Assembly (NCBI GenBank): GCA_947179485.1
Contig: OX359245.1
Location: 44,875,067-44,939,066, forward strand
Source of the DNA: Allacma fusca
Taxonomy: Eukaryota > Arthropoda > Collembola > Symphypleona > Sminthuridae
Length of the DNA stretch: 64,000 bases
Reading direction: 5' to 3'
In this document: positions 37,701 through 56,169 of the stretch, piece by piece
How the letters are laid out: each line of letters begins with the position of its first letter
Numbering within the stretch: position 1 is the first letter of the stretch
Translations under genes and position numbers: made by a program
The notes under the pieces: generated by a model
Told to the model about the DNA's origin: nothing
The model's input: only the letters and a program-made list of their open reading frames with translations
The model's database searches: none

Positions 37701-40700
37701 TTCTCTTCTATTTTCATCTTAATCCATTTTACCAGTTTTTTAAATGTAGTTACCATTGTGGTTATCGTTTTGAGTTTCGTGTGAAATATTATTTTATATT
37801 TATGTTAGTTGTAATTGTTTGAATTGATTATCTTGGAAAGGTATTGAGGATATTTTGCCTTAAAACTTTGCATTTCTAATTGTAGAAACAAAAGAAGTGG
37901 TCGGAGGAGTTGGATGACTGTAGTGCCCGTCTGGCGACTGCAGAAGCGATCAAGTCCCGCTGGACAACGATTGCTGCGGCAGCTGACAAATCAAGTATAC
38001 TGGATCAATTGAAGACTTTTCGAGAACATATCTGGACAACCAATAAATCAATCCAAGACCTGAATACGCACTTTAAGGCTTTAAATCTTAGTAAAGAACC
38101 ACAGAGGCTTGTGGATCTAAATAATAGACTTTCTTACTTGCTCCAGGACTCTCCCGTTCCCTTACTCCTAGACAATTACATATCACATCCGTGGGAGAAA
38201 TTGCACATTAATGGTGTTCCTTACTATGTCAAGTACGTATCTTTGGTTTCCGTATTTTCTAGTTGGGTTGCATTTGTGGAATCGAGTTACTAATCTATTT
38301 ATTTTTTATTTTAGTCATTCTACTGAAACTACTCAATGGGATCATCCTTCCATGACCCAACTACTAAGTCAATTAACGGACTTCAACATGATTCGCTTCT
38401 CTGCCTATAGAACCGCGTTGAAATTACGTGCAATACAAAAACATGTGCATTGTAAGTTAGCATTTTGTGTGTTTTCTTTTTTCTTTTTTTTTTAATTAAA
38501 TTTTTGCTAAATGATTCTTCAGATCTTGCAAGTTTTTCCAAATGTCAGTGTAGTAAATATTTAGAAAAATGTCAATAAAGTGGATAATTATTTTCATTGT
38601 GTCGCAGTGGATCGTATTCCGCTACCGACGTTGATTTCAACGTTCGAAAACCTCGGACTACGAGGTACAAATGACCGTCTTCTGGATGTGCAAGACATGA
38701 CTTTCACCATTCAAACACTCCATGTGAGCTCGGAGTCATGTGCTTACATTACTGACATGACTATCAACTGGATCTTGAATGTGTACGACGCTGCCAGGAC
38801 TGGCAACGTGAGGAATCTCAGCTTTAAAATTGGTCTGGTGCTGCTAGCCAAGGGATCCATGGAGGATAAGTTTCGATGTAATTTTTAAATAGCAAAACAA
38901 GTTTTTATGTGTGTTACAATTTTGGTACAGTTAAAAGTAACAATGGCGTGGTTGGGGTTTTGTATTCTTACAGACTTGTTCCGATTGGTCGCTGATATCA
39001 ACAAAACTGTGGATCAACGAAAGCTGGGTTTGCTCCTTCACGATTGTATGCAGGTGAGCTTTTGATCACCAAGCGTTGTTATTAGATACATTATTTACAA
39101 ATACTTCTATTTCCAGTGCAATCCCAGTATAAATTATTGTGTGAACATGAATCGTTGACTGTATAGATTATGAAGCCGATTTTTCATTGATATTTTTCAA
39201 CAACGTGGTTAAATATTATTTAATTTACTTTATATTTATTTTTCATTAGATCCCTCGAGTGTTAGGTGAGGTTGCTTCGTTCGGTGGCTCAAATATCGAG
39301 CCATCAGTTCGATCCTGTTTCGAAAGTTGTGGGGATGGGGAAAATCTGAAGATGAACAGTTTCATCGAATGGACCAAACAAGAGCCGCAAAGCTTAGTTT
39401 GGCTTCCAGTTCTGCACAGAGTAGCGGCCTCCGAGGGACAAAGTCATAATGCGAAGTGTAATGCTTGCAAGTGTGTTCCTATTATTGGGCTCCGGTAAGC
39501 TAATTTTTTTCATACGCAGTTATTTTAATTGTAGAATTTGCTGATGTCTTCAGAAAGTCCTAGTAGAGCTTCAAAGAATTTTATTCCGTCGTCTGGCAGT
39601 TTTATACGTATCGTGTGATTTTTTTCCTTTTTAGATACCGATGTCTGAAATGTTTCAACTTTGACATGTGTCAAAAATGCTTCTTTTCTGGCAAGAAATC
39701 CAAATCCCATAAGTTGAGTCATCCTATGCAGGAATACTGTATCGAGGTAAATTCCGTTCTGAATTTCGGTCAAATATTTTTGGTTTTATTCAAAAGTTTT
39801 ATGGAAATATTAAAAAATTCCTTTTTAACTGGATTTCTTTGAAATATTTTTATTAGTTGGTTTCCGTTTTTTATATTTCGACTCTTTAACTTTTATTACA
39901 TTATAATTTCATTTGATTTCATTTGATTTGGTTCTATTCAATATAGTCTACATCGAGTGAAGACGTTCGAGACTTCACACGAGCGCTGAAAAATAAGTTC
40001 AAGTCCAAAAGGAAGCTAGAGAAGACCCGGAAATTGGGTTACTTACCAGTGCAATCTCTGTTGGAAGGCGACACATTTGAGTCACCTGTCCATTCTCCTC
40101 AACACTCCTTGTCACCGGAGCTAAGTCACCATAGATTTGTTATTGATAACAATTTAGCAGCTGCTCCACCCCCGGCAACCAATGGCACCTCCACCCTGCC
40201 TCGACCTGATCCTCCAAACCCTAATGAGGTCATGAATAATAACCGTGGATCCGCTCAGTCCACTTGGGTTCAAAATATCCATTCGACGCAAACGCCCGAG
40301 TCGTAAGTGAAAACCGCTACAAACGTCGTTTTATTATTTTAAAATTTATTGTTTAACACAATTCCTAAAACTATGTTTTGCATTCATTTACTTCTTTTAG
40401 GTTCTAGTAATCATACGTTTCTGACTAATTTAAGCATATTGCAATTATTATGTAGTTATTATTGTATTTTTGATACATAATAAGTCATCTTTATTATCAA
40501 TTTTATGCTTTAAAAAACTGTTTTCTTGGGTGATTTTAAAAAGGGACGATGAACACACCTTAATAGCCGCCTACTGCCAATCACTATCGAAGCCGGCAGC
40601 TGTGATTCCTCGCTCTCCGATCCAAGTCTTGTCCTCCATCGATGCGGATCACTCAATCCAGTTGGAGTCTGTGATTCGTTCCTTGGAGCAAGAGAACAAC

Positions 40701-41435
40701 AATTTGCAGATGGAGTACAATCGCCTCTTAGCCAAGAAATCTTCGTTGAACTCTCCGAATCAGATCTTCAACAACATTGAAAACAACAACATCCTCAACG
40801 AGGCCAGGCTTCTTCGAGTGCACAAAGGCAGGCTGGAAGCCAGGATGCAAATTCTTGAGGAGCACAATCGGCAGCTAGAGCAGCAACTAAATCGGTATGC
40901 ATTTGTTTTCATTTATTTGACTACAAAGGGTAAAACTAAAGTCCAATCCTCCGTACAGTATTAAATAAATTTTAATTTAATTGCGTAGCCTCAGACAACT
41001 ATTGGACGAGCCGAAGACAGAAAGCAGTCGGACGGGGACGTTGCAAAGTAAATCGGTGGTTGCATCGGAACTGGACATGAACGCACCTAACAATCTGAAA
41101 TCGACAAATCAGCCTCAGCCAGGTTGATGCCCTAAAACTTTTCGATTTTCGTGGAGTTGATATAAAAAAGGACCTTCTAATTTTCTCTGGTTTTCATGTA
41201 AACAGACAAACCTTCCCCCACAATCTCAACTTTTGGCCCATCCACCAGTCAAGTCATATCATCCCCAGAGCAACAGACAAACTTGCCTATCTATTCGAAG
41301 AATCTTACAACGATGCAGCAAACCGCCTCGCTCTCGCCTCAAGCCCAGGTTGAAGATTTGTTACATCGGGCAGCTGAAATCGGACAACCTCCCGGAAACC
41401 CAGAATTCAACGTGATGACTGATGAGGAAGAGTAG
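3132..41435 (+). CDS. Dys: dystrophin (full-length, alternative first exons), about 57 coding exons
   Basis: Large cytoskeletal linker joining cortical F-actin to the dystroglycan complex under the plasma membrane of muscle and neurons. Exons were placed by GT-AG sites and reading frame, and every junction is phase-compatible. The model starting at 3132 gives about 3,576 residues, close to the ~3,685 of vertebrate Dp427. Rough residues: CH1 38-145, CH2 150-260, spectrin-like rod 300-2900 with an acidic insert near 1646-1664 and proline-rich hinges near 1940-2080 and 2350-2430, WW 2920-2955, EF-hand region 2960-3150, ZZ 3165-3220, coiled coil 3360-3470. The most conserved stretches ([10 protein letters not shown] in CH1, [19 protein letters not shown] before [15 protein letters not shown] in the coiled coil) are unmistakable dystrophin. 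The stop is TAG at 41433. Exon ranges are given in the entries that follow. Utrophin/dystrophin is one gene in invertebrates, so the call is firm. Individual rod splice sites are good but not proven. Confidence 0.96.
4961..4993. repeat. (TG)n microsatellite
   Basis: About 16 TG units with one interruption, inside dystrophin intron 1. Confidence 0.9.
5703..5728 (+). promoter_or_regulatory. candidate core promoter for first exon B
   Basis: A TATATAA element at 5703-5709 is followed 14 bases on by TCAGTG (5723-5728), which fits the arthropod initiator TCAGT. The spacing is a little short for a canonical TATA-to-start distance. It lies about 140 bases upstream of the exon B start codon. This is inference from motifs only in AT-rich DNA. 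Confidence 0.3.
5865..5901 (+). CDS. Dys: dystrophin alternative first exon B
   Basis: ATG in the context gtaaaaATGa starts a 12-codon lysine/glutamate-rich leader ([12 protein letters not shown]) plus one base before GTTTGT. Spliced to 9661 it gives ...VPE-D-EREDVQ in frame. Vertebrate and insect dystrophins also have several first exons, each with a short unique leader spliced to the same CH exon, so this is probably a second promoter. The donor is weaker than that of exon A. Confidence 0.65.
8254..8427. repeat. 33-bp tandem repeat, about 5 copies
   Basis: Units start at about 8254, 8287, 8320, 8353 and 8386, and the copies are almost identical. The unit is very AT-rich. Because 33 is divisible by 3, the minus strand shows an artificial 11-residue protein repeat ([11 protein letters not shown]), which I do not regard as coding. 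Confidence 0.93.
8881..8900. repeat. (TAC)n microsatellite
   Basis: Nearly seven perfect TAC/ACT units in dystrophin intron 1. Confidence 0.9.
9391..9419. repeat. (CAAAA)n simple repeat
   Basis: Four to five CAAAA units just upstream of the first CH exon. Confidence 0.85.
9661..12462 (+). CDS. Dys: dystrophin exons 2-7: actin-binding CH1-CH2 module and start of rod
   Basis: Exons 9661-9722, 9917-10009, 10809-10979, 11242-11331, 11477-11675 and 12164-12462, all phase-compatible. They encode the tandem calponin-homology actin-binding domain. Visible signatures are [70 protein letters not shown] and [11 protein letters not shown]. The last exon continues through a Pro/Glu linker (hinge 1) into the first spectrin-like helix ([20 protein letters not shown]). 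The module binds F-actin and is close in length to the vertebrate one. The intron at 10010-10808 (799 bases) is unusually G/T-rich on this strand and contains nothing I recognise. Confidence 0.95.
12489..13011. mobile_element. MITE-like element, family 1 copy A (intronic)
   Basis: Ends are imperfect inverted repeats: left TAGGGCTACGTTCAAG, right (reverse complement) TAGAGCTGCGTTCAGG. The interior is rich in repeated CAAGTTTAAG/GAACTT-type segments and has no open frame. The same termini bound a second element at 18821-19273. Target-site duplications are not clear. It lies in the intron between dystrophin exons 7 and 8. Confidence 0.6.
13096..20772 (+). CDS. Dys: dystrophin exons 8-27: spectrin-like rod, first half
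   Basis: Exons 13096-13277, 13388-13617, 13937-14211, 14439-14597, 14883-14972, 15114-15342, 15600-15727, 16024-16223, 16308-16582, 16746-16885, 17011-17202, 17409-17619, 17739-17912, 18031-18137, 18284-18424, 18657-18791, 19408-19686, 19922-20050, 20247-20399 and 20476-20772. They encode about 1,240 residues of heptad-rich three-helix repeats with the usual spaced tryptophans (for example [27 protein letters not shown]). The first repeats align with vertebrate repeat 1-3 sequence, including the VVDSSNEA segment. Later repeats are recognised by coiled-coil pattern and phase only, so their splice ends are less certain. The exon at 14883 has two good in-phase donors (after 14942 or 14972). Confidence 0.85.
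15760..15985. repeat. ATT/TTA-rich low-complexity tract
   Basis: Imperfect runs of TTATTA-type sequence filling most of one dystrophin intron. Confidence 0.8.
18821..19273. mobile_element. MITE-like element, family 1 copy B (intronic)
   Basis: Left end CAGTGCTGCGTTCAGG, right end (reverse complement) CAGAGCTGCGTTCAAG. These are the same termini as the element at 12489-13011. About 453 bases, non-coding, with internal GAACTTGAAC-type repeats. The TIR style resembles hAT-like ends (CAG start), but no 8-bp target duplication can be read. Confidence 0.6.
21113..21745 (+). CDS. Dys: dystrophin exon 28: rod exon with acidic insert and PPxY motif
   Basis: The largest coding exon (211 codons). About 60 residues of coiled coil are followed by a disordered, strongly acidic insert with eight successive glutamates, then [10 protein letters not shown], which contains a PPxY motif, then more acidic clusters ([15 protein letters not shown]). 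It returns to a helical pattern after the next splice. It is a rod hinge in position. The PPxY (PPSY) could be a ligand for WW domains, which is inference. Confidence 0.88.
22116..26388 (+). CDS. Dys: dystrophin exons 29-37: mid-rod with proline-rich hinge
   Basis: Exons 22116-22244, 22441-22608, 22864-23004, 23131-23351, 23732-24281, 24373-24468, 25080-25256, 25999-26106 and 26319-26388. The exon at 23131 opens with a Pro/Lys/Glu hinge ([17 protein letters not shown]), and the exon at 23732 has a second Ser/Pro/Thr-rich linker ([15 protein letters not shown]) between helical segments. Residues about 1794-2346. The introns at 24469-25079 and 25257-25998 hold nothing recognisable. In the first of them the frame stays open for about 40 codons past the chosen donor, so a longer exon cannot be excluded. 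Confidence 0.82.
26389..28481 (+). other. 2.1-kb dystrophin intron
   Basis: AT-rich, with open frames on both strands that lack ATG context, splice logic or protein-like composition. It is one of the introns that could host a promoter for an intermediate-length isoform, but I could not support one. Confidence 0.6.
28482..31329 (+). CDS. Dys: dystrophin exons 38-42: Ser/Pro/Thr/Ala hinge and distal rod
   Basis: Exons 28482-28822, 29460-29558, 29654-29759, 29873-29991 and 31117-31329. The first encodes a low-complexity hinge ([19 protein letters not shown], then a [13 protein letters not shown] tract), and the others return to spectrin-like helices (for example [19 protein letters not shown]). 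Residues about 2347-2639. The intron at 29992-31116 (1.1 kb) shows no gene. Confidence 0.82.
32041..32080. repeat. (CT)n microsatellite
   Basis: About 20 CT units with one interruption in the 4.6-kb intron. Confidence 0.9.
32891..33232 (+). CDS. candidate alternative dystrophin exon (unverified)
   Basis: An open segment of over 110 codons ends CAAAAG|GTACAT at phase 0. That phase matches both the upstream exon ending at 31329 and the downstream exon starting at 35931. The protein is unlike the coiled-coil rod: hydrophobic and Ser/Asn/Pro-rich ([14 protein letters not shown], then [13 protein letters not shown]). The frame is closed upstream by TAA at 32861 and has no in-frame ATG, so it would need an acceptor. 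The only phase-0 choice, ending at 32890, has a poor pyrimidine tract. It could be a unique N-terminal exon of a short isoform, an alternative internal exon, or chance. Confidence 0.35.
34752..34783. repeat. (GA)n microsatellite
   Basis: GA units with one interruption in the 4.6-kb dystrophin intron. Confidence 0.9.
35931..38451 (+). CDS. Dys: dystrophin exons 43-49: distal rod and WW domain
   Basis: Exons 35931-35990, 36291-36391, 36515-36686, 37056-37152, 37319-37440, 37886-38232 and 38315-38451 (optional candidate exon not counted). The last two carry the WW domain, with tryptophans in [15 protein letters not shown] and in [10 protein letters not shown]. An intron splits the domain after PYYV. 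It is followed by the conserved [22 protein letters not shown] start of the EF-hand region. The WW plus EF plus ZZ block is the beta-dystroglycan-binding module. Confidence 0.93.
38608..39746 (+). CDS. Dys: dystrophin exons 50-53: EF-hand region and ZZ zinc finger
   Basis: Exons 38608-38877, 38974-39053, 39250-39494 and 39635-39746. Conserved landmarks are [44 protein letters not shown] and [15 protein letters not shown]. The ZZ finger follows, with CNACKC, then [19 protein letters not shown] and a closing His-rich stretch. All expected zinc-ligand Cys pairs are visible. This part stabilises WW-dystroglycan binding. It is the most conserved block of the protein. Confidence 0.96.
39947..41435 (+). 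CDS. Dys: dystrophin exons 54-57: C-terminal coiled coil and tail
   Basis: Exons 39947-40302, 40544-40894, 40989-41122 and 41206-41435. [19 protein letters not shown] and [13 protein letters not shown] follow the ZZ finger. [14 protein letters not shown] precedes the paired leucine-heptad helices ([36 protein letters not shown]) that bind dystrobrevin, and syntrophin binds nearby. The protein ends ...FNVMTDEEE, which matches the VMTDEEGAE-type end of vertebrate dystrophin, so the stop at 41433 is secure. Confidence 0.95.
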
Positions 41436-42906: not shown

Positions 42907-43888
42907 ATGGACTGGTGGCAATACTATCCCCCATTCTTTTGTATGTGCTGTCGTCCAACGGTGATTGTGAGACATCATTGTGATTACCATCATCCGAGCC
43001 AGAATTTATTCATTCCGGGAATGAGGTATCCAACCCAACCGTACCAGCAACCCAGCTGGGAAGTCTATAACCCCCCATCACCGGGGTATATAGAAGAGCT
43101 ACTGAGTAGTCCTGACGTTTCCGCAAAATCCTTACGAACTGATGCGGTCAATCGTTCTGAAAATGTCCCTACGGTTGGACATTCTGAGGAGGGTTTTGCA
43201 ACAGTTCCGACTGAATCTTGTCCCAGTGATTTAGAACACATTTCTGAGGCACCTACGCTTGACAATGACGGATGTGACGATGATCTTGAGACATACTCCA
43301 TCGAAACTAGTGACACAGGAAATAGTTCTATAAGAGAGTCTCAAGATCTATTCCTCCAAGTGTCTAAAGATCCTTCAGAAGCACTTGAAGAGGAACTCCA
43401 AGCTTCTGTCGAGGATGTGGAAGATTCATCTATGATTAGGAACAGCATTGAAACGAATAAACATAAAAAAGACCTGAAGGAAATTAACAATGGTTAGGAC
43501 AGCACTTGCGTTTAGCATTTTATTACATTAATATAAATTTTTCCTTCAAATTGATTATGAGGGGTGTTTGGGTAAAATTTGCTTGAAGCCCACTTGGTCC
43601 TTGCTTGGCCAACATTACAAATATGATTTCAGCATGTAATTTTTTGTTGTAACCCCTGTTAATAATCACATTTTTGATTTTTTTTTTGTTTAAACAGAAT
43701 CCCTTCAAAATAAACCCGTCACACATGTTGAGGAGGACGCTCGACGAAGTTCCCGAATTGCCATTAAACGAGCAAAGTTGGAGGAGCAGTCAGAGCGTGA
43801 AAATGTTAAAGAAAAATTGGCAAATGAGAAGCTCCTCAAGAGGGGATTTATTTGCGAGCGCGCCAATTGTTTTTGTCGCAAGTCTTAA
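42907..43888 (+). CDS. uncharacterised 258-residue protein, two coding exons
   Basis: I do not recognise this family. ATG in a strong context (gaaaccATGg) lies just after a T-rich acceptor ending at 42891. Exons 42907-43492 and 43698-43888 join at phase 1 and stop at TAA 43886. The N-terminus is aromatic- and Cys/His-rich (MDWWQYYPPFFCMCC, then RHHCDYHH), followed by a Pro/Tyr/Gln-rich patch, a long acidic Ser/Thr/Glu-rich disordered middle, and a basic helical C-terminus (RRSSRIAIKRAKLEEQ) closing with a small Cys cluster (CERANCFC). No signal peptide or membrane segment is visible. The basic RRSSRIA segment suggests nuclear or nucleic-acid association, which is inference. Codon composition and the clean intron argue that it is real. 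It converges on the ADAM-like gene. Confidence 0.65.
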
Positions 43889-44354: not shown

Positions 44355-47300
44355 TTATGCCAACAACATTGCTACGAGCAACATGAGTGGTAGGGAGAGG
44401 AAGAGCTGAGTGATGTCACTGCTGGAGTGACATGACAAGCCGGTTTTGCGGCATGGGAACTTGCCATTCCTGGGGTAACAACATTTCTGGCCAGAACAAT
44501 TATAGGCACTTCCGCAGTCGCATTCTTCACCGTCTTCGATAATTCCTATTCAAATAAATATAGAAAAATCCTGTCAAATGTTGCAGGGATAGGAAACTCA
44601 ATAAAATTATTTAATTGGATCACGAAGAACACAAGATGCAATTTTTGCTTCGTATCTTCCTGAAGGATCGTAATACAGTAGTGCATTTTTTACGCTAAAA
44701 TATGGTTATGTACCATTTCCACAGAAGGGATGCATATTGGTCTCGAAGCATGCTGCCCTGCAACCAGATAGGACACTGTGAACATTGCGAATGGTACAAG
44801 AACTAAAACGCTTCTCTTCCTCAGATATATTCCGAAGGACATCTGGCCACATGATAAAGTGCCGGACTTGGTTTTTATGGTCCCAGAACTGATCGCAGAC
44901 TTCCTTCCCAGTTGCATCCAAAGACGCTCCAAAGGACTTTGCAATTTCGTGGGCCGTCACATATATGAGCTGGTCCTCTGACATGGACGAGTAATTACCT
45001 TCCCGATTATTGGCGGAGATTAAAATGACATTACTGGACATTCCAGCAGAACGAACCGCACACATTCCGGATGGATAGGTGGCTTGAGCTGAAAAAATCA
45101 TTTAGTTTTATCCTTCAAAAAACAGAACAGAATTTTTCTTCAGGAAATTAATCGCCATTGGTAATTAAATTACAGCTTGGCGTAAGTGTCAATAATAAGT
45201 GTAATAACTTTCGAGTTATCATAATCTTTATTAAATGAATTAAAATAGAATAATAAAAGAGGATTTTGATTCCTTTTGATATGTAGAAGCTCAAGTGAGA
45301 TCAAGTTCACATGGAAATCTTCAGATTATCTGAGTCAAAGACAGCTTGGATCTAAATTATATTTACCATTGACAGCAGATGATCTTGCATAAATCTGTTC
45401 CTGGAAGCCCTTCATAGTATAAGCGATAGCGAGACAACATTCAGAAAAATCCATCTGGGAGAGTTTCGTGAAGACTACGTCCAGGTCATCTTTAGATATG
45501 AATTCTTTTGTATCCATACTTTCAATGTTCCAAATATTGACTTGGGCGTCATATTCCAGGCCAATGTTGTCAGGGACATCGTCCAAGTCCCAGTCCACTG
45601 AACGGAAGATCCAAGAGACTCTGTCAATAATATAGCTCAAGTTCTCTAGGGTTGATGACTCGTTCCTCGTTGACTTGAAAAATTGTTGGAAAGTTGGGTC
45701 CACTAGGAGGCATATTCGGCAGAGGTAGCCGCCTTGTCTAAAATTCGGAAGAGAAAATATTAAAAGTTCGATTTGCATCTAACAATAATATTCACTCTCA
45801 ATTCTGGTTCTAAATCCAACACACTCAAATATTAAAATACAATAAGTGCACATATAATTTGAATCGTAATTATTCACCAGGGAAATAGCATTTAAGTTCT
45901 AAAAAAACCTGTTGCTTCGAAAAGATGGGGGAGGCAAGACACAGTCATATTCCATAGAGCTTGCAAAAGCCATTATAGCAACGGTTCCTTCATGCTCATG
46001 CAGAGTCCTCACATTCGTTCCTGCATTGTACGATTTTTTAAATGTGACATTTTAAAAATCACACGAACGTTTTTTGACGTACTAAAATGCTACCTTCTGT
46101 TAGGATAGTTTGGCCATTGGGTCTGAACTTGTACTTCTTACTTTCGGCGGCTGTAAAATATTATGAGAAATTCTATAATAATAATTAATTCACAGAATAT
46201 TGCAAGGGAGCTGGTAATATTAAGCTATGCTCTAGTTTCTATCAACAACTTCAATTTGATCAAGTCTGAGTCAATCTCAAAAGTGCATCTCTTTAAATTG
46301 ATTGACATTCAAGCAGCTTTACGTCTACGTTACTTGTATGGAGTACAAATATTATTCTTACGTACTTAAGAGCGACACAGATCCATCATGCTCAATTATT
46401 ACAGAATCCCCTGGAGCTTCTATAAATAATAAGCATGTTTTATTAAAACAACCAAGCTCTAACTCAAACCTTATTTTGAAATCGTAGTTCAATTATTACT
46501 GAAAGTCAGTCGTCCTTCCTCATCGACTTTAATAGAAGGCTCGCCCTCCGCAATGTAGGAGTTCCTACTGGTACTAAATATCAGGAAAGGCTTCGTACTT
46601 CTATCATGGGGGTTGTCATTCGTCATGAAGTATAGCAAACTGATTCCCCGGGTCACGACAGCATTGAAAGGTTTATTGTCACTTTCCTCCTGCTTCTTTG
46701 GAATCGACGGCCTCAGAACGTACAAGATGTTCTGGAGGAACTTCCTCTCATGCCTCAAAAGCTTCGTTAGTAATGCTATTTCCTCCACTTCATACACGAT
46801 CAGTTCTTGGAGCTCTTCGTCAAAATACGACACCTCGCCGTAGAATAATCTTTTAAAATAAATTACGAAATTAGATACTCCAATTTGGCTTCAATGTAGG
46901 ATATACTTATAGTAAGTTGGTGCTCATCCAAACTCATATCATAATTACCTGTCAACCATCCTCCCAAAAACTGTTGATTTCTTGATGCCCCGAACATACC
47001 CATGAACCTTCATCTCTCGATCCTCGAACAAGTCATAATGGGACTGAAAAAAATGGGGGTTTGCATTTTTAGCGAAGGCTACTTTCACTCATGTTGTTTC
47101 TACCATTGACCCTAAGTTTTAATAAAATTGGTTGGATTTGCTTGCATATGTGATTTAACCAATTTCATATCCCCTAACTCTTCTTTCCCATGTTGACCAC
47201 TTTTTATTCAAATAAGTATTTGTGTTCATATATGTTGTGCTAATTTTAAAAATGACATTTCAGCTATCATTCGTACATTGCACTCTGTATTTGTGACTGC

Positions 47301-47817
47301 CCTTCAAAATGCAAAAAGTATTCCCTTTTTAAACTGTCACTATTTACAAGGAGATAAATTAATATTTTTGTAAGTGTTCCAGTACCTAAAATAATTGTAT
47401 TGGTCATTTAGATAAAAGGGTCTCACAATGAGGTCACGTTGTGGAAAGAGTTGCCGCATTTTGCGCATACAATTTCGTTACTTTCTTTACGTAATTTAAA
47501 AAAAAATAACCCCTGAATACTTAGCGTACTTCAGCAGGATGAAGAAATGATTCAAAATTATTTGTGAATTCCAGCTGTTGTCTGAAAATACAAATGGTAA
47601 TATTTTCTCGACCAGGACGTTCATCCGGGACCTTGAGGCTAAAGGGTCGACAAGGAGCCTCACGGCTTTTCCACAAGAACTTTTCCCGGTAAGGAATGGC
47701 TGGCCAAGTGGAGCCCGCGTCGGTATTAGCAATTGTGAACATTATCAAAGGGTTTGGGGACGGCAAGTCTTCAGGAGTCTGAGGCCTTGAGTCAGTTAAG
47801 GGACTTATTGCAATCAT
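44355..47817 (-). CDS. ADAM10/17-like membrane metalloprotease homologue, predicted catalytically dead and truncated
   Basis: Nine exons in transcription order: 47817-47530, 47043-46949, 46849-46500, 46419-46366, 46150-46094, 46020-45909, 45737-45367, 45088-44714 and 44545-44355. All phases agree and they read as about 630 residues. A prodomain leads to an RSNR site (furin-like RxxR), then the metalloprotease fold (LCRICLLVDPTFQQFF; YIIDRVSWIFRSVDWD), which resembles ADAM17. The zinc helix reads HEIAKSFGASLD where active ADAMs have HExxHxxGxxHD, so two of the three zinc histidines are Lys and Leu. After RFSSCTIRNV and CGNG comes a shortened disintegrin segment (EDGEECDCG), then a C-terminal hydrophobic run (LFLSLPLMLLVAMLLA) directly before the stop, like a GPI-anchor signal or a tail anchor. 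Cysteine-rich, EGF and cytoplasmic regions are absent. The 5' end is uncertain: no signal peptide is seen after the 47817 Met, and a good acceptor lies just before it, so an upstream exon is likely missing. Confidence 0.75.
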
Positions 47818-47819
47818 GA

Positions 47820-49092
47820 CTGTGGAAGCAGAGTATGTAATTCCACGTTAATTACAATCTTATACAAACAAGTATCAGCAAAAGTGTATTTCCAAATGAT
47901 TTAGAGATGTACGTAGATCCTTACTTGACAAATAAATTGGTATGAATTTAATTATCCCTGGTATATTCATCATTAGCGTTGATAGATATTATAGCTGGAA
48001 AATATATAAACTAATTTTAATATTGTTTCTACAACTGTTCCACAGGGCCACTTTGGAGGTTACGCGTAAAAGGCAATCAATCCTGGTTCATTTGGAGGTA
48101 ATTTTGGTTCCTTATTTTACTTTACGCCAAAAAATAAACCTAATATTTCAAATTCTTTTTTCTAGATGAATTCAAAATCAAGTTCATACAGCAGAGATCT
48201 AACATCAATAACACTCCACACCACACCACACTAACATTCTAAATTATGTTTGTTTTTTTGATATTGTAAATGGTAATGGTAATCTGGCGACTCGTACGGA
48301 CAGGGACTACGGAGAGCTATTTCTTGGGAAAGAAAGTGGCCAATTTTGTAGAATCCACTATTGTGTACAACTTTCAGACAGAATTTAAATTGTTTCATTT
48401 GTTTCATTGTCAAAATAGTTATTACTAAATTTTTTTAATTGAATTACAATAATAATACAAGGATTTAATTTTTTTTTCACCATTATTTTTTGATTTAAAT
48501 TTATTTTATTGCATAAATATTAAAATTATCATTAAAATTACAAAAATCATCTTTGAATTCTAAACTAACAAATTATTGATTTTAACAAAAAGTTTCAACA
48601 ATCAAGCCATCCGCCGAAACGAATGGGAAGTATGGCAGCCATGAATTTGAATTTTAATAATAATTTGAGTACAATAATGTTTTATATACGAATATCTTAG
48701 AAGTTTTATTTTTTTGCAGTAATTACACAGAGAATTATATAGATATTATATAAACTGCCAAAACCGCTAAATAATCTTAACTTATAAGGGGTTATCTATG
48801 TGATTTGGTGTCTGGCCTATTTAAAAAATTAACCTATCTAATACTCAGTAATTATTGCTCTTTTTACAACATTTCTTATATACATAGGTATTCGCAGTAA
48901 CTTAATTGGTGCAGTCACTTTATCTATTGTTACAGTAAACAAAAATCGTATGGAAACTTTCATGTGGGTTTATAGCCCTTTGAATCAATCAGCTGTTTTT
49001 AAAATTAAGTTAGAATGCCTGTAATTCGGTTGAAAAAAAATATCAGAATTCTTTTTAAATTAATCTGATATTTTTTACTGAATTTTACTGAA
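47820..49092. other. AT-rich intergenic stretch
   Basis: Should contain the missing 5' exon and promoter of the minus-strand ADAM-like gene. I could not identify a signal-peptide exon. No other gene seen. Confidence 0.5.
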
Positions 49093-51290: not shown

Positions 51291-51549
51291 ATGATGAAAA
51301 ATTCGCGTAGCTTTCACACTATAATATATACTGTAAGCCTGAACCATAAACCCATAATCCATTTTAAGTTCTGAGGCTGACAAAGCAACTGATTCGAGGG
51401 TATTTCCAAGTATTGAAAGTACGATTAATATTGTAAATATTTTGTGAACAAACATTTTTCAAAAAATACTTCATGTGTAATTAAACTTTCTCTGGATGAA
51501 ATAAAACGAATTTGCAAAATCCTCAAACAAGCTAGGAATATTTTTTCTA

Positions 51550-54323: not shown

Positions 54324-56169
54324 ATGATTTCCTTACTTTTTGGATTTGCGATACTTTATTTCCTTGTATCCAAAATCCGTTATTCCGGAACATCTTTAAA
54401 TTTACCTTGTGGTATGAAATTTCTCACTAATTTCATGTTACCAAATAAATTGAATGTTGTGTTGAGATTGATTGAATATTTACAGGTCCATTAAACCTCC
54501 CCTTAATCGGAAATATACAGTGGCTGGCAACATTTCCATGGAAACATTTTTCCAAATATGGAAAACTCTATGGTCCGATTGCTCACCTAAAAATGGGGAA
54601 AACACGGTAAAGTTTTTAATGTGTTCACATGTAAATTCAAATATAGCAGGTTACAAGCAATTCTATATCGTGTTGTTTAGTGCGTTTTTATTGAATGACG
54701 TTATGACATGGAAGGCAGCGTATTCTCAAGCTGAGCTCAGTCGACATCCAGGCAAAGTGTTTGAATCAACTTTGAAAAATAAAAGTACTTTATGCTCACA
54801 TTATTTGCAAATGCAACTCACTTATAAATTAAAATTAAAGGTTTAAATGCATTTCTGTTAAACATGCGCAGGTGTCATTTTTGGCAACGGAAATCCAGAA
54901 ATTAAACATTTTATGATCAAAGCCCTGAATGATTTTGGAAAGGATTCCTTAGAAAATTTGGCATTAAAAGAAATTTCGATTTGTTGTCAAAGATTATTGA
55001 AAACTAATGGGAGGCCCATAGCAATTGAATCACTCTTTCCCATTCCAACAGTTAATGTTCTTTGGACACTGCTACTTGGAAAGCGGATTGAAGAAAGCGA
55101 TCAAAGTTTGCACGATTTTGCGGAAATAATTACAACGTAAGATAATGAACAGGCAAAATTTTCTCACTAATGTCTTCGTGTTTTTTACGAAGTTTTATAA
55201 AAAACATTTTTGGGTATTTCAGTATGTCAAATAACTCCTCCTTTTTGGGAAGGGAATCTATGCTTTTTTTGATTCCTTATGCAAGGAAATTATTTCCTTC
55301 AAAATCCCGCAACGAATCAATTCAAAATATATTATTGAAGTGGACTAACGTTATAAAGGAAAAAATAGAAGAGCGTGTGCGTAATCGCCAGAAGTTTGAA
55401 GTCAGCAACATTACAGACGCCTATTTCGACAAGGTCGAACAAACAGATCCAAACTCGAACTCTTTTTTCGCAGGAGGTATTTGTCTTACTGATATTTTGC
55501 AAATGATACGCAATTTTAAGTATTTACATTATTTGTTTTATTTGTGCAGATAATTCTATTCATTTCGTTTATATGGGCTTATTCATGGCTGGCGCTGACT
55601 CAACAAGTACAAGCTTGGAGTGGTTAATTCTGTTTGTGGCCACAAATCCATTAGTCAAGAAGAGATTTCGTGACGAAATTGAAAATATTATCGGTAACAG
55701 AGCGCCGTCCCTAATTGACCGGCAGCGAATGCCCTATGCATTAGCTGTTATTGAGGAAATGTTTAGACTTTCAGTAATTTCCATTACTCAGTTTCGACAG
55801 GCTAAGGAAGACACAAAACTTCTTGGGTATGACATTCCTAAAGGATCAATACTAATTCCAAATGTTTACGCTATTAATCGAGATCCCAAAGTTTGGCTTG
55901 ATCCGGAAAATTTTAGACCCGAAAGGTTTATTAATGCCGATGGTAAGTTTCAGAAAAGTGACAGATTTAATACTTTCGGATATGGCAAAAGGTCTTGTAT
56001 TGGAGAAACTATTGCACGAAATCAGATCTTCTTGTTTGCCACAAGCATTTTTCAACAGTTTGACGTAACAATATATGGTGATATTCCCCCATTGAATGGA
56101 AACTTTGGGTTTTTGCATCATCCCAAAAGGTACAAGGTATGTTTTGAAAAGATGAACAACAACGTCTAA
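54324..56169 (+). CDS. cytochrome P450, CYP2-clan, intact, 6 exons
   Basis: Microsomal haem monooxygenase, substrate unknown. Exons 54324-54411, 54486-54606, 54681-54784, 54872-55136, 55223-55476 and 55550-56169 are in phase and read as 483 residues, normal for a P450. Seen in order: N-terminal membrane anchor (MISLLFGFAILYFLVSKI), proline hinge (LPCGPLNLPLIGNI), I-helix MAGADSTSTSLEW (oxygen-activation motif with Ser for Thr), K-helix EEMFR (ExxR), DPENFRPERF, and the haem loop FGYGKRSCIGE with the Cys ligand. The C-helix is odd: where CYP2 proteins have WxxxR this reads NPEIK, so the usual haem-propionate Trp and Arg are replaced. ATG 54324 is chosen because it starts the anchor and follows a TATA box. 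The exon-3 acceptor (after 54680) was chosen by phase and P450 alignment. Two related copies nearby are dead. AATAAA follows at 56348. Confidence 0.87.

What the first reader, a model, noticed from the sequence alone, without database searches (positions are those of the whole stretch)
44355..47817. ADAM17-like pseudoprotease with a hydrophobic C-terminal tail and no cysteine-rich/EGF region
The zinc helix HEIAKSFGASLD keeps only the first His and the Glu. The second and third zinc ligands are Lys and Leu. The disintegrin domain stops after about 40 residues and is followed at once by a hydrophobic tail that ends the protein, as in GPI-anchored proteins. All nine exons stay in frame, so it looks maintained rather than decayed. 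A dead, surface-tethered ADAM could act as a decoy or a regulator of sheddases or their substrates.
Basis: partly seen in the sequence, partly recalled or inferred. Interest (0 to 1): 0.75.

Follow-up and report, generated by a model that had tools for sequence, protein, structure and literature searches.

The report
Dead, surface-tethered ADAM in a springtail
A springtail gene encodes a relative of the cell-surface scissors ADAM10 and ADAM17 that has lost its cutting site but still looks intact and probably sits on the cell surface as a binding protein, and it seems to be one of about ten such blunt relatives in the same genome.

Summary
Nine in-frame exons, HEIAKSFGASLD without two zinc ligands, a truncated disintegrin and a hydrophobic GPI-type end are there. 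The genome fits Allacma fusca, a springtail. A tenth, upstream exon (47973-47925) probably supplies a signal peptide, giving 647 aa; another candidate exon at 51455 scores almost as well. The gene is not ADAM17: ADAM10 and ADAM17 match about equally and joining it to either is rejected (p-AU 0.002 and 0.006). It groups with nine A. fusca paralogues: the canonical HExxHxxGxxHD is absent in 10 of 10 (two models uncertain) and present in 3 of 3 A. fusca ADAM10/17 genes. Seven of ten share an extra cysteine pair, none of five ADAM10/17 sequences. One dead pair shows Ka/Ks 0.06. Best reading: a maintained, zinc-free, probably GPI-anchored binding protein. Expression, anchor, partner and presence in other springtails are untested. 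Pseudo-ADAMs are known; one of the ADAM10/17 branch with this ending is, as far as I could check, a new variant.

The parts
47925..47973 (-). Probable exon 1, signal peptide start (MMNIPGIIKFIPIYLS)
   Evidence: GTAAGG donor (3.32), phase 1, 105-bp intron to acceptor CTTCCACAG|TC; first of the listed candidates, with a rival at 51455 close behind
47530..47819 (-).
   Evidence: acceptor CTTCCACAG, donor GAA|GTACGC 0.22
46949..47043 (-). Exon 3, prodomain
46500..46849 (-). Exon 4, prodomain
   Evidence: donor TCA|GTAATA is the weakest of the nine
46366..46419 (-). Exon 5, prodomain
46094..46150 (-). Exon 6, prodomain
45909..46020 (-). Exon 7, end of prodomain; Cys325 (possible cysteine switch) and RSNR (possible furin site)
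   Evidence: both roles inferred
45367..45737 (-). Exon 8, first half of metalloprotease-like domain, with extra family cysteines Cys345 and Cys436
   Evidence: Reprolysin_5 spans 325-530 of the 630-aa model, exons 8 and 9; cysteines
44714..45088 (-). Exon 9, second half of metalloprotease-like domain with the dead zinc helix and Met-turn
44916..44951 (-). HEIAKSFGASLD, zinc ligands 2 and 3 replaced by Lys and Leu
44355..44545 (-). Exon 10, truncated disintegrin part, tail and stop
44358..44429 (-). GPI-type C-terminal signal HSSSDITQLFLSLPLMLLVAMLLA
   Evidence: hydropathy and control; no GPI predictor was run

Best explanation
An intact gene of the springtail Allacma fusca, without a near-identical copy, encodes a secretory-pathway protein with a signal-peptide-like start, a prodomain, a metzincin-type domain without a zinc site, half a disintegrin domain and a GPI-type end. 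Shown from sequence: the open frame, the lost ligands, the kept structural residues, the tail, and grouping with dead paralogues apart from ADAM10 and ADAM17. Inferred: after clipping at RSNR the pseudoprotease plus half-disintegrin is displayed on the outer leaflet by a lipid anchor and works by binding a partner protein, as ADAM22/23 or the sperm ADAMs do, not by cutting.
For: Open frame with hydrophobic start and end. Two zinc ligands lost while Met-turn, Gly, Asp and 14 of 17 cysteines agree with human ADAM10. Best of six paralogues aligned is 34% identical and the branch is 1.1-1.6 amino-acid changes per column; about 82 stops are expected at one neutral substitution per nucleotide, none is seen. 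Dead paralogue pair L032/L040: Ks 0.105, Ka 0.006, ratio 0.061, Fisher p 6e-9, over 807 bases of the domain. Split from ADAM10/17 supported 100/99. A Cys-rich query finds nothing credible in the window (best E 0.31, opposite strand, 38 kb away).
Against: No RNA evidence, no GPI or signal-peptide predictor, no structure model, no dN/dS for the window gene itself. Splice donors are uneven, and one GT inside the last exon (44530, score 0.66) scores above three of the nine donors used, so a different 3' path is not excluded. The Cys-rich query is weak: it finds true ADAM10 only at E 0.08. Of the nine paralogues only L033 and, less clearly, L030 end in a hydrophobic stretch; for the six-member clade none was found and the C-termini are unresolved.
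Confidence: 0.5

Rival explanations
1. Decoy or dominant-negative regulator: the GPI-anchored dead domain holds ADAM10/17 substrates, or occupies their partners (tetraspanins, iRhoms), and so restrains shedding.
For: The domain is closest to ADAM10/17 and true ADAM10/17 genes coexist in the genome.
Against: Far diverged from ADAM10/17; the Cys-rich and membrane-proximal parts through which ADAM10/17 meet their regulators (recalled) were not found.
Confidence: 0.18
2. Soluble or differently anchored main product: an unseen exon path changes the C-terminus, and the hydrophobic tail is a minor isoform or not used.
For: No transcript data; a GT at 44530 scores 0.66, above three of nine used donors; L039 has a Cys-rich region downstream (read by eye; weak match to ADAM10). 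Raised from 0.13 to 0.17 (best reading lowered from 0.55 to 0.5) after rechecking these donor scores.
Against: No Cys-rich match in the window (weak query); a + strand ORF, read by eye, ends about 470 bp downstream; in the six-member clade the frame, read directly, also stops right after the half disintegrin.
Confidence: 0.17
3. Pseudogene or silent locus.
For: Active site lost; no expression data.
Against: Open frame at deep divergence and purifying selection in a dead sister pair.
Confidence: 0.05
4. Still an enzyme, with another metal site or acting through a partner.
For: His1 and Glu are retained.
Against: Lys and Leu at ligands 2 and 3; no further His in HEIAKSFGASLDATGKE.
Confidence: 0.03

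Closest known systems
ADAM10 / Kuzbanian
   Same: Best solved match, 5.3e-19 (8esv); same domain order up to the disintegrin start; 14 of 17 cysteines shared
   Different: Intact zinc site; full disintegrin, Cys-rich domain and transmembrane segment (recalled; parts read in L037); grouping rejected, p-AU 0.00557
ADAM17 / TACE
   Same: Nearly equal match, 4.7e-18 (2i47)
   Different: Intact zinc site; grouping rejected, p-AU 0.00225
ADAM pseudoproteases (ADAM2, 7, 11, 18, 22, 23, 29, 32; UNC-71)
   Same: ADAM domain with substituted HExxHxxGxxHD, Met-turn typically kept, non-catalytic binding (PMC11266112, passages)
   Different: The table seen there has no ADAM10/17-branch member (branch by recall), and that review gives ADAMs a Cys-rich, EGF-like and transmembrane part
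iRhom pseudoproteases
   Same: Dead protease relatives that govern ADAM17 (titles and abstract starts)
   Different: Rhomboid fold, unrelated in sequence (recalled)

Membership tests
ADAM (M12B, broad) | Metzincin domain of the reprolysin type | tested here: met
   Reprolysin_5 31.8 bits, cut-off 27
ADAM (M12B, broad) | Disintegrin domain | tested here: inconclusive
   First 43 of 75 positions, 20 bits, cut-off 35.1
ADAM (M12B, broad) | Cys-rich domain and transmembrane segment followed by a cytosolic tail | tested here: not met
   No such Pfam match, no Cys-rich match in the window with a weak query; the hydrophobic stretch ends the protein
ADAM17 | Orthology to ADAM17 | tested here: not met
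   p-AU 0.00225; A. fusca ADAM17 is L035 on chromosome 4, joined to human ADAM17 at 99/96
ADAM10 | Orthology to ADAM10 | tested here: not met
   p-AU 0.00557; A. fusca ADAM10-like genes are L037 and L036
ADAM pseudoprotease | Catalytic motif substituted | tested here: met
   HEIAKSFGASLD
ADAM pseudoprotease | No proteolytic activity | not testable with these tools
   needs an assay
GPI-anchored protein | N-terminal signal peptide | tested here: inconclusive
   Hydrophobic start, 16-aa mean 2.11, if exon 1 is right; two candidate first exons; no predictor run
GPI-anchored protein | C-terminal hydrophobic tail after small residues, no cytosolic part | tested here: met
   HSSSD, then a hydrophobic end; 2 of 685 frames reach it, its own included; no predictor run
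GPI-anchored protein | Actual lipid anchor | not testable with these tools
   needs PI-PLC release

The most novel reading that the evidence does not exclude
A. fusca carries a distinct family of about ten catalytically dead ADAM10/17-branch proteins, most marked by an extra cysteine pair, in which the active site was lost by several separate routes (catalytic Glu lost in six, two His lost in the window gene, a one-residue shift in L030, motif gone in L033 and L039), with truncated disintegrins and GPI-type ends in some, on four chromosomes and half of them on X2. It would be a separate pseudo-sheddase family serving as surface recognition or reproductive proteins.
Probability: 0.4. Interest if true: 0.75.

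Novelty: new variant of a known kind. Interest (0 to 1): 0.55.

Why it matters
The pseudoprotease ADAMs in the review table I saw include none of the ADAM10/17 branch, whose two enzymes control Notch and growth-factor release (recalled). A dead, membrane-tethered family from that branch would give a natural test of what the sheddase fold does when it cannot cut, and would show that the branch can be turned into binding proteins.

Tried and rejected
Rejected: ADAM17 or ADAM10 orthology; recent pseudogene (no near-identical copy in the genome: outside the gene itself the best match is 30% identical, apart from short disintegrin pieces of up to 61%). Loci L044 and L049 on chromosome 2 were examined as further members and left out: their disintegrin runs on as in classical ADAMs, by eye. 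Of the other hits, five (L003, L004, L005, L006, L008) were looked at and left out as another type (HELGHN, HELAHN, HEIGHS motifs); those without a locus there were not looked at.

Led nowhere: viral-contig scan with the seven-sequence alignment, 554 pattern matches, no relative; the answer warns that records near the window's genome may be left out. Search for a hydrophobic-tail exon behind the six-member clade: nothing consistent; all six have GTA across the stop, so a true stop and a splice donor cannot be told apart. Downstream regions of the paralogues: two hits, both on the opposite strand of L033. L045 and L046, beside L033, hold no clear further member. Literature: 'collembola' with 'reprolysin', 0 papers; 'folsomia candida' with 'disintegrin', 0 papers; six phrases such as 'GPI-anchored ADAM' or 'inactive ADAM', 94 papers hold at least one, 20 listed, and none of the 20 holds a GPI phrase; some searches listed 12 of 145, 10 of 40,150, 1 of 1, 15 of 6,861 and 6 of 13 papers, nothing on springtail ADAMs among those listed. 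The library is partial and the lists are short, so absence from print is not shown.

Not done: structure prediction, GPI and signal-peptide predictors, RNA-seq, dN/dS of the window gene, search of other springtails or of GTDB.

Weak points: paralogue models come from a spliced aligner that I wrote; L033, L039 and the start of L036 are the least sure. One search dropped L033 and L039 from the tree, and the p-AU tests use those 13 rows; one search has all 15. One search warns that the window row is long and may join falsely with the six-member clade. In the L032/L040 comparison the last three bases of the exon (the stop), where the alignment had a one-base gap, were cut off before counting.

Full report
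What was checked. The window lies at C1:44875067-44939066 of a 392,743,791-base genome in 91 contigs. One contig length, 66,084,411 (C10), equals the scaffold N50 printed for Allacma fusca qeAllFusc8.1, and C8, C12 and C5 fit its chromosome table to the digits given (PMC10427803, passages and outline). C9 is about 6 kb shorter than the printed N90 scaffold, the total is about 43 kb below the printed 392,786,974, and the paper counts 95 scaffolds; the length of C1 was not seen. I take C1 as chromosome 1 (by elimination), C8 as 2, C10 as 3, C12 as 4, C5 as X1 and C9 as X2.

The gene. On the minus strand nine exons from 47817 to 44355 join in frame. The first of these starts right behind a splice acceptor, and an exon at 47973-47925 with a GTAAGG donor completes a signal-peptide-like start. 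A second candidate at 51455 scores almost the same, with a weaker donor and a 3.5-kb intron; either would give a hydrophobic start. The model with ten exons has 647 residues: start, prodomain with RSNR at residue 333, metalloprotease-like domain to residue 581, truncated disintegrin from CGNG at 582, then HSSSD and a hydrophobic end; six N-glycosylation sequons. The prodomain has no match in Pfam or the PDB; one stretch recurs weakly in paralogues L031, L032 and L040 (E 0.44 to 2.9), so its ADAM10 resemblance is mostly recalled.

The active site. HEIAKSFGASLD against HExxHxxGxxHD loses ligands two and three and keeps His1, Glu, Gly and Asp; the Met-turn methionine stays. Known ADAM pseudoproteases show comparable substitutions, for example QLLSLSMGITYD in ADAM2, and typically keep the Met-turn (PMC11266112, passages).

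The relatives. Searching the genome with the window protein and with L038, L030, L039 and L033 gives nine further loci that I count with it: L029, L030, L031, L032, L033 on X2, L034 on chromosome 3, L038, L039, L040 on chromosome 2 (loci). These searches score only the best candidates, so ten is a lower bound. Motifs: HALGHLFGAPHD (L029), HALGHLFGAHHD (L031), HAVGHLFGAHHD (L034), HILGHLFGAAHD (L038), HSLGHLFGASHT (L032), HSLGHLFGASHI (L040), HELGHSFGVTRHD with one extra residue (L030), not recognisable in L033 and L039, whose models are uncertain. So 0 of 10 show the canonical motif; 3 of 3 A. fusca ADAM10/17 genes (L035, L036, L037) do. L030 may still bind zinc. The Met-turn methionine is kept in the window gene, L030, L031 and L034 and is Leu in L029, L038, L032 and L040.

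Tree. With 15 rows the five ADAM10/17 sequences (three A. fusca, two human) split from the ten others with support 100/99; with L033 and L039 dropped the split stays at 100/99. The tree is unrooted, so this is a bipartition, not proof that the ten are one clade; within it the place of the window gene is open or weak (59/16). Holding the window gene with ADAM17 or with ADAM10 is rejected (p-AU 0.00225 and 0.00557); holding it with L030 is not (0.265) (13 rows). An extra cysteine pair (Cys345 and Cys436 here) is present in 7 of 10 members; L034 has the first, and a cysteine four residues off for the second; L033 and L039 lack both; 0 of 5 ADAM10/17 rows have either, though the start of the L036 model is unsure. 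This shared trait supports that the window gene, L030 and the six-member clade belong together. L033 and L039 are the doubtful members.

Selection. L032 (X2) and L040 (chromosome 2) are recent copies that both lack the catalytic Glu: 17 synonymous and 4 non-synonymous differences over 807 bases, Ka/Ks 0.061, Fisher p 6e-9, with 1 to 7.5% difference in the introns and 2 to 4% in other flanking stretches compared. The window gene has no close copy, so the argument for it is indirect: about 82 stops would be expected at one neutral substitution per site, and none is seen.

C-terminus. Inside the last exon the best GT (44530) scores 0.66, above three of the nine donors used; the other twelve are negative. 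A Cys-rich query built from L039 finds nothing credible in the window, but it finds true ADAM10 only at E 0.08, so it is weak. By direct reading L033 also ends in a hydrophobic stretch (last-15 mean 2.26), L030 less clearly (1.58, with an Arg inside), the six-member clade stops right after the half disintegrin with no tail found, and L039 has a Cys-rich region downstream (by eye). The half disintegrin thus appears to be a family feature, the GPI-type end a feature of a few.

Function. Binding without cutting is what pseudo-ADAMs do where tested: ADAM22 and 23 use surface loops at synapses, sperm ADAMs their disintegrin parts (PMC11266112, passages), and ADAM11 binds Wnt and BMP4 pathway proteins (PMC10520719, passages). 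I commit to a GPI-anchored binding or recognition protein (0.5), with sheddase decoy (0.18) and a different C-terminal product (0.17) next. The partner is unknown. Five of ten members lie on X2, which is 48.07 of 392.8 Mb; this hints at sex-linked biology, but duplications are not independent and no test was made.

Novelty. The pseudoprotease table in PMC11266112 lists no ADAM10 or ADAM17 relative that I recognise, and the word GPI does not occur in its main text. PMC3170276 and PMC4848645 (passages only) mention inactive ADAMs without such a case. My searches found no report of such proteins in the papers listed, in a library that lacks most subscription papers. No other springtail genome could be searched.

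Noticed in passing
55573-56169 (+): Cytochrome P450 C-terminal part, Pfam PF00067 at 8.8e-62.
   Followed up: partly
40470-40964 (+): Coiled-coil ORF that resembles the dystrophin C-terminus (recalled); no Pfam match at 0.01.
   Followed up: partly
42907-43888 (+): Convergent ORF (42907-43497) with, by eye, a second exon ending about 470 bp from the ADAM stop; the first ORF has no Pfam match at 0.01.
   Followed up: partly
L032 (X2, 10.86 Mb) and L040 (chr2, 73.89 Mb): A recent inter-chromosomal duplication of several kb holding a dead ADAM gene; the longest piece is 95.8% identical over 4,652 aligned positions.
   Followed up: yes
L044 (chr2, 70.98 Mb), about 6627-4230 minus strand: A classical-type ADAM with HMLGHNLNMPHD, Met in place of the catalytic Glu: another pseudo-ADAM, outside this family.
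   Followed up: partly
L038 domain: The one member of the six-member clade tested scores below the Pfam cut-off (18.5 v 27 bits for Reprolysin_2), so such genes may go unannotated.
   Followed up: no
L029, about 2.9 kb behind the ADAM stop: A reading frame that looks like the start of MLH1 (recalled) on the same strand.
   Followed up: no
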